DNA of 64,000 nt from IMG/VR virus record IMGVR_UViG_3300048927_000250, positions 151,419-215,418 of that record. The stretch is one strand, 5' to 3'. The notes below the pieces were generated by a model. That model searched no databases and was not told where the DNA came from. It worked only from the letters and a program-made list of their open reading frames with translations. Every line of letters begins with the position of its first letter. Within the stretch, counting starts at the first letter, position 1. This document shows positions 481-48,306 of the stretch, in pieces. Both the position numbers and the translations under genes were made by a program. This stretch comes from a virus.

Positions 481-945
481 TTATTCTCCATCCACCTCGT
501 AAGGGTGGTGGACATCAATCTCTAAGTCAGTGGGGCCTAGAATGCGCTGTATCATCGGATAAACCTCCCAATGTTTCAGCCACCCATTTCCACACCCGGG
601 CATCGTCATCGCGATATCGAAGAGCCCACGCTGGTCATACGTGTCTCTGAGCTTAATCAGTCCCTGTTCAACCCACTCCATCTTAGACGGGGCTTTCCAG
701 TCTACTTTAGTGGGGAACAACAGGATGATTTTTCCGTCGGGCATCCGCTCGCTGTACAACATGCCAATCTTGAACATCCCGGCGCGGCACCACTTACGGT
801 ACTTTTCGTAGAGGGCAGGATAGTTATCACGGCAATCCTTCGCAATCCCCGCACCCATCGCCCCAACGCAGTTCACCGTTATCATGATGCACTCTTTATC
901 AGTGTCCCAGATGTTCTGGTTCTTGAGCTTCCTGATGATTGCCAC
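481..945 (-). CDS. Macro domain protein, DarG/Poa1p-like
   Basis: The 154-residue protein is a single macro domain. NCVGAMGAGIA at residues 25-35 matches the ADP-ribose-binding loop seen in DarG-type macro domains. The later FPTKVDWK followed by S-x-x-E-W-x-x-x-GL matches the substrate-side segment of the same group. Members remove ADP-ribose from DNA or protein, or bind ADP-ribose derivatives. The start is GTG, with AGGAG about 11 bases upstream, and it overlaps the end of the preceding gene by 47 bases, suggesting coupled expression. In a phage a role against host ADP-ribosylation defences such as DarT is attractive, but this is inference. Confidence 0.85.
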   Translation of the reverse strand: MAIIRKLKNQNIWDTDKECIMITVNCVGAMGAGIAKDCRDNYPALYEKYRKWCRAGMFKIGMLYSERMPDGKIILLFPTKVDWKAPSKMEWVEQGLIKLRDTYDQRGLFDIAMTMPGCGNGWLKHWEVYPMIQRILGPTDLEIDVHHPYEVDGE

Positions 946-45448: not shown

Positions 45449-45487
45449 ATACGCTCCTGTAAAGCGCTGTAGGCGTTTAAAAAAGAA

Positions 45488-45509
45488 AAGGTGGGGGTTT
45501 CCCCACCTT
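45488..45509 (-). terminator. Intrinsic terminator
   Basis: A 9-bp stem (aaggtgggg/ccccacctt) with a GTTT loop is followed on the minus strand by TTCTTTTTT. It lies 9 bases after the stop at 45518. Confidence 0.9.
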
Positions 45510-45517
45510 TGATGTTG

Positions 45518-46552
45518 TTACGGGTGAATCTTTTCCCAGAGCTCCTGGTGAGCTTTGATTTCGAGGTGGTTAAGGTACTGTAACGTTCCTTTACGCACCC
45601 CTTGGTAAATATTCACGTAATCGAAGTCGTAATACGCTTCCAGCAGAATGGTGACTGAAGGAGATTTTTCCTGAATCGCCTTGTGTTTACGGTAGACGCC
45701 ACGCACGTGCTGGAAGAAAGCATCACGTACACCGTCCAGGGTTTCCTTCAGGCTGCACGCGAACAGCTGGTACAACGCCACATGTACATCACGCCATGGA
45801 GTCAGGTCACCGTGACCGATGGCTGTCAGACAGAAGCGGCGAGCATCGTCGTATTTGAGCGCCATGGCCACATGACCAACCTTCTCCTGCTCTGTCCAGA
45901 ACCAGTCCGGGGTTTCGGTCTGCGCATGTTCGAAGAACGCCACCACGAGTTCAGGCGCATCGCCGGAATACTGGATGTGGTCAACTGCCAAACTTTTACG
46001 CAGGTCTTTTACTTTATGGACGGCTTCGTTGAAGAGACCTAACCACGGACTGAGCCCATTGGTCTTACCGGGTTCCGATGATGCGAAGACCGGCAGTTCC
46101 AGGTCGGCGAGGAAAGAGCGTAACGCCAGAATTTCCATCAGCAGCGGACGCTCAGGGATACCTTCTACACCGTGGTCACCCAGGTAGTAGTTTGCCTCCA
46201 CCTTCACGCTCATGTGCGAGACTGTGTAAAAGCTGATGTCGCTATCGTCACCCAGCGTCAGCACCCCGTCTTTGTTGATGAGCTGTAGCGTACCGTACCC
46301 ACCGTCTAACTCTAGGTACAACGTGAAGTCTTTGTTGAGGTCCGCTTTCGCCATGTCCTCATCAGACAGTGGGAAGTCGATGCTTTCGTTGACCTTCCAG
46401 TCCAGGGAGATAGTATCGACGGTAATCTTCTGAAGCTGGTCGAGAGAGTGATAACCCTTCTCGGAGATTTCGCGACGCCACTCACAGCGGTCGTCAACGA
46501 AGGTCAGGTAAATTTCTTGTACGTCTTTGTTGGTTGCGAAAAGTGAAGTCAT
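45518..46552 (-). CDS. Accessory protein of unknown function
   Basis: The 344-residue product has a beta-rich N-terminal half (about 1-120, with FTLYLELDGGYGTLQLINKDG written in parts) and a helical C-terminal half with His and Trp residues. No catalytic signature is clear. The ATG shares ATGA with the stop of the ADP-ribosyltransferase-like gene and has AGGAGG upstream, so the two products are probably made together, and it may be its partner or target adaptor. Confidence 0.6.
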   Translation of the reverse strand: MTSLFATNKDVQEIYLTFVDDRCEWRREISEKGYHSLDQLQKITVDTISLDWKVNESIDFPLSDEDMAKADLNKDFTLYLELDGGYGTLQLINKDGVLTLGDDSDISFYTVSHMSVKVEANYYLGDHGVEGIPERPLLMEILALRSFLADLELPVFASSEPGKTNGLSPWLGLFNEAVHKVKDLRKSLAVDHIQYSGDAPELVVAFFEHAQTETPDWFWTEQEKVGHVAMALKYDDARRFCLTAIGHGDLTPWRDVHVALYQLFACSLKETLDGVRDAFFQHVRGVYRKHKAIQEKSPSVTILLEAYYDFDYVNIYQGVRKGTLQYLNHLEIKAHQELWEKIHP

Positions 46553-47133
46553 TTGGTTTCCTCCTGAGGAATGATTTGTTCGACACGAACGATTTTAATG
46601 GTTTCTTTGGCGAAGACTCGCCACTCAGTCGTGTACATGGATGCAGCATTGCCGCCGTACGCCGCCCCGTCAAACCCTGCTGCGATTAATTTAGTAACCT
46701 CTTCAGGGTCGTCGTAGAACGGGTAGGCTTGGAAGTAGAGTTCCTCCAGTCGGTCCGGGTAACGGTCCAACCATTGGTCAATCGTGTGGTTCGGGTACTG
46801 CGCAAATTCCGATACGGTCATGTCCTCCCAGAGGTTGGTGTCGACAATCCACTCTTTGAACTTGCGGGCAATACGTAGGGCTTCGGTACGCCCGAGTTTA
46901 GCTTCAACCTCACCTAACTCCAGGAAGGGGTCAGTCGGGGTATTCTGGAAAAAGTTCTTGCAGTCGAGAGTAGCGACGACAATGCGTGGGTTCTCGACCT
47001 GTCCCAACGCATCCAGTGGATGGATGGCGTAGTAGTGAGCGGTGGGTCGATGGTTACTGAAGGTCCATGACGCCAACCGCTTATCTAAGACGTCTCCCGC
47101 ACCGTAAATGCCGCGAAAGAATTCTGTAGTCAT
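46549..47133 (-). CDS. ADP-ribosyltransferase-like protein
   Basis: The 194-residue product follows the ART-fold plan. FFRGIYGAGDVLDKRL at 5-20 carries the N-terminal Arg. SWTFSNHRPTAHYYA at 22-36 resembles the S-x-S strand and following helix. VVATLDCKNF is followed by the N-T-x-x-D-P-F-L-E segment. GFDGAAYGGN with TTEWRVFAKETIKIV holds the closing strands and a Glu near 170. Families of this plan transfer ADP-ribose to protein, DNA or RNA, though some are inactive. It is the second gene of a coupled trio (ATGA overlaps on both sides). Activity is inferred, not shown. Confidence 0.55.
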   Translation of the reverse strand: MTTEFFRGIYGAGDVLDKRLASWTFSNHRPTAHYYAIHPLDALGQVENPRIVVATLDCKNFFQNTPTDPFLELGEVEAKLGRTEALRIARKFKEWIVDTNLWEDMTVSEFAQYPNHTIDQWLDRYPDRLEELYFQAYPFYDDPEEVTKLIAAGFDGAAYGGNAASMYTTEWRVFAKETIKIVRVEQIIPQEETK

Positions 47134-47789
47134 TGTGCTTTCAGACTCCCGCCTGTTTTGCTGGCCCCGGCCTGCACTTGTTGTTCTTTACGCAGGTAAA
47201 CCATTTCGAGGTTGAAATGATAAACCGCATTGTTCAGAATCGCCCGTAACCCAGTCAGGGTTTTGGCGCTGTTAATTTGGTCAGTCAGGTAATCGCGATG
47301 ATGCGGGTCGAATTCCTGGAACGCAACTTCTTGCCCCAGACGTTTGTGGATGTCGTGCACCACTGCATTCAACGCGTACTTTTCTTGCACTTCTTTGTAG
47401 TGCACTTCGTAGATATCGCGGACCGCATCGAGCAAAGCCTTCAGGCGGTCAGACCCGCCCACGATGAACAGTTGGTGTTCCACATCGCGCACGAACTCAG
47501 AGATGAAATCCACCATCTGACTTTCAACCGCCAGAAAGTCAGGGAGTATGATGTCTCGCCAGCTCTGACTGTTTTTCAGCATCCCTTCTAACCAGACTTG
47601 TTCCGAACGCTCAGTCTCGGCAACCAGTCCCGGAAGCCGCGCTGCGAGATTGGATTGGAGGCTAGCAACCATCGGTTTGTTCAGTGCGGTTGTTTTTGCC
47701 CGTTCAGTCAGGTTCAACAGGTCCTGCATGATGGCAGCTGCCATCTGAACGTAAATAAGTTTCTTCTTGTTGTCGAAGTTGTTGTACAT
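47130..47789 (-). CDS. Helical protein of unknown function
   Basis: The product is 219 residues from the ATG at 47789, with AGGAG about 9 bases upstream. The frame from 47819 includes that site. Long Leu-, Gln- and Lys-rich helices span most of the protein, and coiled-coil pairing is likely at about 10-70. The C-terminus is flexible (QVQAGASKTGGSLKAQ). It precedes the ADP-ribosyltransferase-like gene with an ATGA overlap. No known domain. Confidence 0.6.
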   Translation of the reverse strand: MYNNFDNKKKLIYVQMAAAIMQDLLNLTERAKTTALNKPMVASLQSNLAARLPGLVAETERSEQVWLEGMLKNSQSWRDIILPDFLAVESQMVDFISEFVRDVEHQLFIVGGSDRLKALLDAVRDIYEVHYKEVQEKYALNAVVHDIHKRLGQEVAFQEFDPHHRDYLTDQINSAKTLTGLRAILNNAVYHFNLEMVYLRKEQQVQAGASKTGGSLKAQ

Positions 47790-47818
47790 TACTTTTTTCT
47801 CCTGAATAAAAGAATACA

Positions 47819-47844
47819 CTCCAGGTCCCCGAAGGAACCTGGAG
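47819..47844 (-). terminator. Intrinsic terminator
   Basis: An 8-bp stem (ctccaggt/acctggag) with a 10-base loop is followed on the minus strand by TGTATTCTTTTATT. It lies 26 bases after the stop at 47870. Confidence 0.65.
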
Positions 47845-48271: not shown

Positions 48272-48306
48272 GTTTACTCCGATAGGGGTCCATGGACCCC
48301 GGGTTA

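What the first reader, a model, noticed from the sequence alone, without database searches (positions are those of the whole stretch)
46549..47133. ADP-ribosyltransferase-like protein coupled to two unknown genes
The FxRG start, S-x-S-like strand and GFDGxxYGGN plus closing strand pattern resemble ART folds. Phage ARTs (for example those of T4) modify host polymerase and translation proteins. The gene overlaps both neighbours by four bases, so the products of 45518 and 47130 may be partners, regulators or inhibitors.
Basis: inference. Interest (0 to 1): 0.55.

Follow-up and report, generated by a model that had tools for sequence, protein, structure and literature searches.

The report
Jumbo-phage ADP-ribosyltransferase with R-S-E site
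A giant virus of the fire-blight bacterium carries a small gene that very probably encodes an ADP-ribosyltransferase, an enzyme that tags other molecules using the cofactor NAD; it belongs to a little-studied phage family that had no assigned function.

Summary
The ORF is real: minus strand, 46549-47133, 194 aa, overlapping both neighbours by 4 bases. The ADP-ribosyltransferase (ART) reading holds, but the gene is not T4-like. P0001 belongs to PHROG 8642 ("unknown function"), with tblastn matches in 47 phage records. Homologous domains sit inside large polyvalent proteins beside canonical ART-PolyVal (PF18760) domains and share their flanking motifs. An AlphaFold model (pLDDT 86.7) has an ART fold with R7 on strand 1, S22-x-T24 at strand 2 and E170 on a late strand. 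R and E are invariant in 16 of 16 selected homologues. The published ART-PolyVal site is H-Y-D, and R-S-E ARTs were reported absent from genuine polyvalent proteins, so this is an R-S-E variant of a known kind. A SPN3US/Caitlin-type branch has lost both residues. The two overlapping neighbours are orphans of PhiEaH1-like phages, so a partner or antitoxin role has only operon evidence. A better-supported ADP-ribose link is a DarG-like macrodomain gene in the same window (481-945, minus); its homologue lies 8 nt upstream of the ART gene in Klebsiella phage Eowyn. Activity, target and delivery remain untested.

The parts
46549..47133 (-). ART-fold protein P0001 (194 aa), PHROG 8642; predicted catalytic residues R7, S22/T24, E170
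47130..47819 (-). P0003, upstream overlapping gene; the listed ORF is 229 aa from GTG, but the likely start is the ATG at codon 11 (219 aa), as annotated in vB_Ea277G; orphan, probably all-helical (single-sequence model, pLDDT 53.6, unreliable)
45518..46552 (-). P0002, downstream overlapping gene, 344 aa, orphan of PhiEaH1-like phages
47819..47844 (-). terminator-like hairpin (11 pairs) just upstream of the three-gene cassette
45487..45510 (-). terminator-like hairpin (10 pairs) just downstream of the three-gene cassette
481..945 (-). P0011, DarG-like macrodomain protein (154 aa), candidate ADP-ribose eraser; its homologue is adjacent to the ART gene in Eowyn-type phages

Best explanation
P0001 is a stand-alone ADP-ribosyltransferase of the phage lineage PHROG 8642, an R-S/T-E-site relative of the ART-PolyVal domains of polyvalent phage proteins. 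Inferred action: in the infected cell it binds NAD+ in the split-sheet cleft (R7 and S22/T24 holding NAD+, E170 positioning the ribose for attack) and transfers ADP-ribose to a host macromolecule, probably a protein, to favour the phage or blunt defence. Shown here: gene, homology, predicted fold, residue placement on strands, conservation, purifying selection. Inferred: catalysis, target, timing, whether it is packaged in the head, and whether the phage's DarG-like macrodomain limits or reverses the mark.
For: phrog_8642 match E 7.4e-62. Homologous domains inside Dfl-JY45 and Tunturi_5 polyvalent proteins that carry canonical ART-PolyVal domains. The Tunturi_5 copy with its flanks scores PF18760 at 1e-12, over the gathering cut-off. 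6 of 9 members of A6 match PF18760 and no other ART family of Pfam. hhalign of R-type against H-type profiles, upstream flanks removed: E 5.5e-14, probability 98%. AF2 model pLDDT 86.7, pTM 0.82, R7 on E5-9, S22/T24 at or on E23-26, E170 on E169-173. VIA-align Z 8.1-8.2 to ParT and MbcT, about 7 to tankyrase and diphtheria toxin catalytic domains. BFVD matches include named ART-PolyVal-like proteins. R 16 of 16, E 16 of 16, F25 16 of 16 in the R-type set. Strong purifying selection. A macrodomain gene is adjacent in Eowyn, KpGz_1 and KpHz_2.
Against: P0001 alone matches no Pfam or NCBIfam model. Cores without flanks score PF18760 below its cut-off (E 0.00011 to 0.014 in 3 of 4, no match in 1). 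Foldseek against the PDB gives one match under 0.001, a virion protein not named an ART; named ARTs start at E 0.15. The first S of S-x-[ST] is S in only 12 of 16. The SPN3US/Caitlin branch has no R or E, so the family does not always need catalysis. The Q/E-x-E motif of many R-S-E ARTs (recalled) is present in only 3 of 16 (counted on the alignment), so the target residue cannot be guessed.
Confidence: 0.7

Rival explanations
1. NADase or NAD+ phosphorylase: the protein consumes NAD+ or makes a small ADP-ribose product instead of modifying a macromolecule, like RES-type toxins.
For: The closest named solved folds are ParT and MbcT (Z 8.1-8.2), of toxin-antitoxin systems; the Q/E-x-E element is not conserved.
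Against: Sequence affinity is to ART-PolyVal domains, predicted in PMC5512222 to modify host proteins; near-tied Z values do not separate enzyme classes.
Confidence: 0.15
2. Toxin-antitoxin-like cassette: P0003 and/or P0002 bind and silence P0001 inside the producing cell or in the virion.
For: Three overlapping genes between two terminator-like hairpins; the gene upstream of the predicted toxin is in the usual antitoxin place (recalled).
Against: 4-base overlaps are routine in phage operons (recalled). Neither neighbour has a convincing homologue outside three PhiEaH1-like records; a search with P0003 in six ART-bearing records found only PhiEaH1 itself and one weak short match far from the ART gene in Eowyn. 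No known antitoxin family was hit.
Confidence: 0.15
3. Non-catalytic binding protein: the fold is kept for binding (structural or decoy role) and the residues are incidental, as in the SPN3US/Caitlin branch.
For: SPN3US, SaP7, Proteus phage 7 and Caitlin copies lack R and E yet are retained.
Against: In this phage and in all 16 R-type rows R and E are invariant although the homologues are only 29-39% identical to P0001.
Confidence: 0.1
4. The macrodomain is unrelated to P0001: it only defeats host DarT-type DNA ADP-ribosylation or clears small ADP-ribose signals. (This concerns the pairing, and is compatible with P0001 being an ART.)
For: Macrodomain homologues of P0011 occur in 275 phage records against 47 with the ART, so many lack it; PMC9503650 (section 3.4.1 read) reports macro domains in 56% of jumbo phages.
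Against: Adjacent to the ART gene in Eowyn, KpGz_1 and KpHz_2 and present in 7 of 7 jumbo-size records examined that have a stand-alone copy; these records are related, so the count is weak.
Confidence: 0.5

Closest known systems
ART-PolyVal (PF18760), Tox-ART-HYD2-like ARTs of polyvalent proteins (PMC5512222)
   Same: Homologous core and, in polyvalent relatives, the same flanks (a WFGxSKVVDxxGKPLVVY-like start and an IKSAxGN-like end); canonical and variant copies share proteins
   Different: R instead of H on strand 1, S-x-[ST]-F on strand 2, an invariant E where the 6 H-type rows have no conserved residue; a longer helical middle part; stand-alone here
T4 Alt / ModA / ModB (Alt/VIP2 and Mod families)
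   Same: Phage ARTs with R-S-E residues
   Different: No profile similarity to ModA/ModB (hhalign E 0.11); Q/E-x-E not conserved; PhiEaH1 has homologues of virion RNA polymerase subunits (table passage of PMC5105663), so host RNA polymerase is a less obvious target
PHROG 8642
   Same: Direct member, E 7.4e-62; SPN3US_0178, Caitlin, Moabitevirus and Eowyn proteins also match
   Different: No function assigned; its SPN3US-type members lack the catalytic residues
ParT / MbcT (ART-fold toxins)
   Same: Fold, VIA Z 8.1-8.2
   Different: No sequence match found; no similar antitoxin found
DarG macrodomain
   Same: P0011 (481-945) matches NF048014 at 4.6e-36 and PADLOC DarG at 6.6e-39
   Different: Macro part only, far under the NF048014 cut-off (124.8 of 250 bits); no DarT gene was looked for in the whole record

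Membership tests
ADP-ribosyltransferase superfamily | Split beta-sheet ART fold | tested here: met
   AF2 pLDDT 86.7, pTM 0.82; VIA Z 8.2 ParT, 8.1 MbcT, about 7 tankyrase/diphtheria toxin. Foldseek E-values for named ARTs in the PDB are weak.
ADP-ribosyltransferase superfamily | NAD+-dependent activity | not testable with these tools
   needs a bench assay
R-S-E ARTs | R on strand 1, S on strand 2, E on strand 5 | tested here: met
   R7, S22 (with T24) and E170 sit on or next to the expected strands; R and E 16 of 16, first S 12 of 16, S or T at position 24 15 of 16. Spatial geometry not measured.
ART-PolyVal (PF18760) | Score over the Pfam gathering cut-off | tested here: not met
   P0001: no match. 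Relative in Tunturi_5 with flanks: 49.5 bits over 31.2; four cores without flanks: none over the cut-off.
ART-PolyVal (PF18760) | H-Y-D active site (PMC5512222) | tested here: not met
   R-S/T-E instead
ART-PolyVal (PF18760) | Homology to its domains | tested here: met
   hhalign E 5.5e-14; both kinds side by side in three proteins: Dfl-JY45, Tunturi_5, L011
T4 Alt/Mod families | Profile similarity to T4 ModA/ModB | tested here: inconclusive
   hhalign E 0.11 over 37 columns; but only a two-sequence profile was used and Alt was not tested
PHROG 8642 | Profile match over the full length | tested here: met
   7.4e-62, profile 1-177 of 177
Toxin-antitoxin pair | Toxicity neutralised by a linked gene | not testable with these tools
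   needs co-expression

The most novel reading that the evidence does not exclude
PHROG 8642 is a distinct ART lineage in which the R-S-E active site occurs within ART-PolyVal-type domains, including inside genuine polyvalent proteins, so the site type does not separate the great ART clades as cleanly as thought. In jumbo phages it has become a stand-alone writer paired with a DarG-like macrodomain eraser, giving a phage-encoded reversible ADP-ribosylation switch.
Probability: 0.2. Interest if true: 0.65.

Novelty: new variant of a known kind. Interest (0 to 1): 0.45.

Why it matters
It gives a testable function to PHROG 8642, an unannotated family carried by jumbo phages of Erwinia, Klebsiella, Serratia and Salmonella, including the genetic model SPN3US. 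It also shows an R-S/T-E site in domains homologous to, and in the same proteins as, H-type ART-PolyVal domains, which bears on how the site-based ART classes arose. Finally it names a candidate eraser, the macrodomain, in the same genome.

Tried and rejected
Direct T4-type ART: not supported, since the profile comparison with ModA/ModB gave no match (two-sequence profile). Neighbours as conserved partners: no convincing homologues in the phage collection, IMG/VR or other ART-bearing records; weak PADLOC and Pfam hits (REase_II 0.0046, C3a76 0.0047, GA 0.0086) taken as chance. Paralogues of the three genes within the window: none found among 77 window ORFs. Folding P0003 alone: pLDDT 53.6, unusable beyond 'helical'. 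Sequence search of the PDB with P0001, the R-type profile and an H-type profile: no ART; the rows returned are unrelated proteins taken as chance. A second ART-PolyVal match in the window's record: none at E up to 1. Whether the Cyanophage A4 match (9k3a_B 1420-1611) is an ART could not be shown; its paper is not held. Virion presence of SPN3US_0178 (gp178): the main-text passages searched do not list it and the supplement could not be read. Nesting of R-type within H-type domains: the tree puts R-types together with weak support (54/79) and long branches, so the direction of change is unresolved. Co-occurrence with the macrodomain: 7 of 13 records, but the background is high.

Literature searches for prior mention: ART-PolyVal, PhiEaH1 and ADP-ribosyl, polyvalent proteins with ART, jumbo and nucleus with ART, Eowyn with macro domain, R-S-E with phage, phrog_8642 or Iapetusvirus. 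In those listings and the passages read I saw no assignment of this family; most subscription papers are not held and the supplementary tables of PMC9503650 were not seen, so it may be listed there.

Full report
The gene. The finding's coordinates match an ORF on the minus strand, 46549-47133, 194 aa (P0001). It overlaps the upstream gene P0003 (47130-47819) and the downstream gene P0002 (45518-46552) by 4 bases each. The window is part of a 215,418-base virus record, close to Erwinia amylovora jumbo phages PhiEaH1 and vB_Ea277G (92-96% of a 10-kb query covered at 94-96% identity). P0001 is 99.0-99.5% identical in those phages; the window copy differs from them by 13 synonymous to 1 and 17 to 2 nonsynonymous changes. 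The three genes lie between two minus-strand terminator-like hairpins. The terminase large subunit gene of PhiEaH1 lies upstream on the same strand, about 5 kb from the ART homologue. vB_Ea277G annotates the P0003 homologue as 660 nt, i.e. from the ATG at codon 11.

Homologues. P0001 matches PHROG 8642, unknown function, over its whole profile (7.4e-62), and no Pfam, NCBIfam or PADLOC model. tblastn finds 47 of 50,697 phage records at E up to 1, 19 of them over at least 80% of the query; 40 were listed. Four kinds of context appear: stand-alone genes in Eowyn, KpGz_1, KpHz_2 and Moabitevirus; a domain inside a 2,387-aa protein of Dfl-JY45 and a 1,262-aa protein of Tunturi_5, the latter next to the portal gene; genes of more distant similarity in SPN3US-type and Machinavirus phages; and further IMG/VR and bacterial contigs found with an alignment (7 loci, 2, 9 of which 7 repeat earlier contigs). 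P0004, P0007, P0008, P0009, L015, L010 and L016 all match PHROG 8642 (7 of 7 scanned).

Link to ART-PolyVal. The Dfl-JY45 and Tunturi_5 proteins carry ART-PolyVal (PF18760) matches (4 and 2 stretches). The P0001-like domain of Tunturi_5 with its flanks scores 49.5 bits (E 1e-12, cut-off 31.2), that of Dfl-JY45 18.6 bits. 6 of the 9 members of alignment A6 match PF18760 at E up to 1 (best 1.6e-10) and no other ART family; P0001 itself is among the 3 that do not. A control matters: cores without flanks score only E 0.006, 0.00011 and 0.014, with no match for the fourth, so much of the strong score comes from the flanks. With upstream flanks trimmed, a profile of 16 R-type domains aligns to a profile of 6 H-type domains with E 5.5e-14 and 98% probability, and to T4 ModA/ModB with E 0.11. 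In three proteins (Dfl-JY45, Tunturi_5, L011) both kinds stand in one chain with the same motifs around them, VVYHGT or the like versus VVYRGE, and the IKSAxGN-type end, the latter altered in the Dfl-JY45 R-type copy.

The site. In the 16 R-type rows R (R7 of P0001), F25 and E (E170) are invariant; position 22 is S in 12 of 16 and position 24 is S or T in 15 of 16 (read from the alignment). The position two before E is Q or E in only 3 of 16. The 16 rows leave out near-copies (L013, L018-L020, L022, L023, L025, L026, KpHz_2, BUCT660, Totoro and other listed records) and, by choice, the SPN3US/Caitlin branch. In that branch the four copies read (SPN3US, SaP7, Proteus phage 7, Caitlin) have neither R nor E at these places. 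[quoted passage not shown] The present family is therefore an R-S/T-E variant by residues, with ART-PolyVal affinity by sequence. A 26-row tree groups the 17 R-type rows with one change but weak support (54/79) and long branches, so whether R came from H is open.

The fold. AlphaFold2 on A6 (window and session loci only) gave pLDDT 86.7 and pTM 0.82; R7 lies on E5-9, S22 next to and T24 on E23-26, E170 on E169-173. Foldseek against the PDB gave one match under 0.001, Cyanophage A4 pre-ejectosome chain 9k3a_B (E 2.3e-5), then PARP4 and ParT at E 0.15-0.23. VIA-align gave Z 9.5 for 9k3a_B residues 1420-1611, 8.2 for ParT, 8.1 for MbcT and about 7 for tankyrases and diphtheria toxin; the tool warns that Z under 8 can be a common arrangement. 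In BFVD 30 matches pass 0.001, led by the Eowyn and Moabite homologues and including proteins named ART-PolyVal-like. The A4 match is a lead to a virion-packaged relative, since that protein is part of a pre-ejectosome by its title; its paper was not held.

Macrodomain. Searching the same record for PF01661 gave a sub-threshold place at window 574-879; the ORF 481-945 (P0011) matches DarG models at 4.6e-36 (NF048014, under its cut-off) and 6.6e-39 (PADLOC), and macrodomain chains of solved structures (5m3i, 5m31) by sequence (that 5m31 is a DarG macrodomain is recalled). Its homologue lies 8 nt upstream of the ART gene in Eowyn and in the same place in KpGz_1 and KpHz_2. Of 13 records searched, 7 have it: all 7 jumbo-size records with a stand-alone copy; the 6 without are 5 with polyvalent copies and one 47-kb contig with a 313-aa protein. 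The macrodomain is common in phages (275 records; 56% of jumbo phages in PMC9503650, section 3.4.1 read), so the pairing is suggestive only.

Neighbours. P0002 and P0003 match only the three PhiEaH1-like records (one chance-level extra for P0002), nothing in IMG/VR, and no convincing family. No paralogues were found among 77 window ORFs. Their coupling to the ART gene is real as gene overlap but specific to this lineage.

Mechanism. The most likely reading is an NAD+-dependent transferase acting on a host macromolecule during infection. PMC9503650 (sections 3.3.1, 3.4.1 and 3.7.1 read) argues that phage ARTs near terminase or portal genes are often head-packaged; the Tunturi_5 copy beside the portal gene and this gene's place near the terminase fit, but packaging is not shown here. 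PhiEaH1 has homologues of SPN3US virion RNA polymerase subunits (table passage in PMC5105663, with the subunit names from PMC5694885), so remodelling host RNA polymerase, as in T4, is not the obvious purpose; translation or defence proteins are equally possible. The verdict is a supported ART-fold enzyme candidate, a new variant of a known kind, with target and partners open.

Noticed in passing
window 481-945 (-): DarG-like macrodomain gene, labelled phosphatase or Appr-1-P processing protein in PhiEaH1 records.
   Followed up: partly
L007:4866-5393, L008:4923-5459, L039:266-793, L040:263-793: PHROG 8642 members of SPN3US-type and Machinavirus phages keep the domain but lack the catalytic R and E: a likely pseudoenzyme branch.
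   Followed up: partly
L005:3396-7184: Tunturi_5 gp225 is labelled MutT/NUDIX hydrolase, but Pfam finds a Nuc_deoxyri_tr2 domain and two ART-PolyVal stretches and no Nudix match; it lies just upstream of the portal gene.
   Followed up: no
L016:5908-7236 (Massilia), L017:770-1726 (Bradyrhizobium MAG): R-type ART domains in bacterial contigs, the first with a C-terminal extension of about 240 aa; prophage or plasmid origin not checked.
   Followed up: no
window 48282-48302, 47819-47844, 45487-45510: Hairpins sit between successive genes of this minus-strand run (the first read by eye, the others); they may be terminators or processing sites.
   Followed up: partly
PDB 9k3a_B residues 1420-1611 (match to window 46549-47133): A domain of the Cyanophage A4 pre-ejectosome is the best structural match to P0001, a lead to an ART-like domain in an ejected virion protein.
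   Followed up: partly
window 45518-46552 (-): P0002 is one codon longer in the window record than in PhiEaH1 and vB_Ea277G (1035 against 1032 nt).
   Followed up: no
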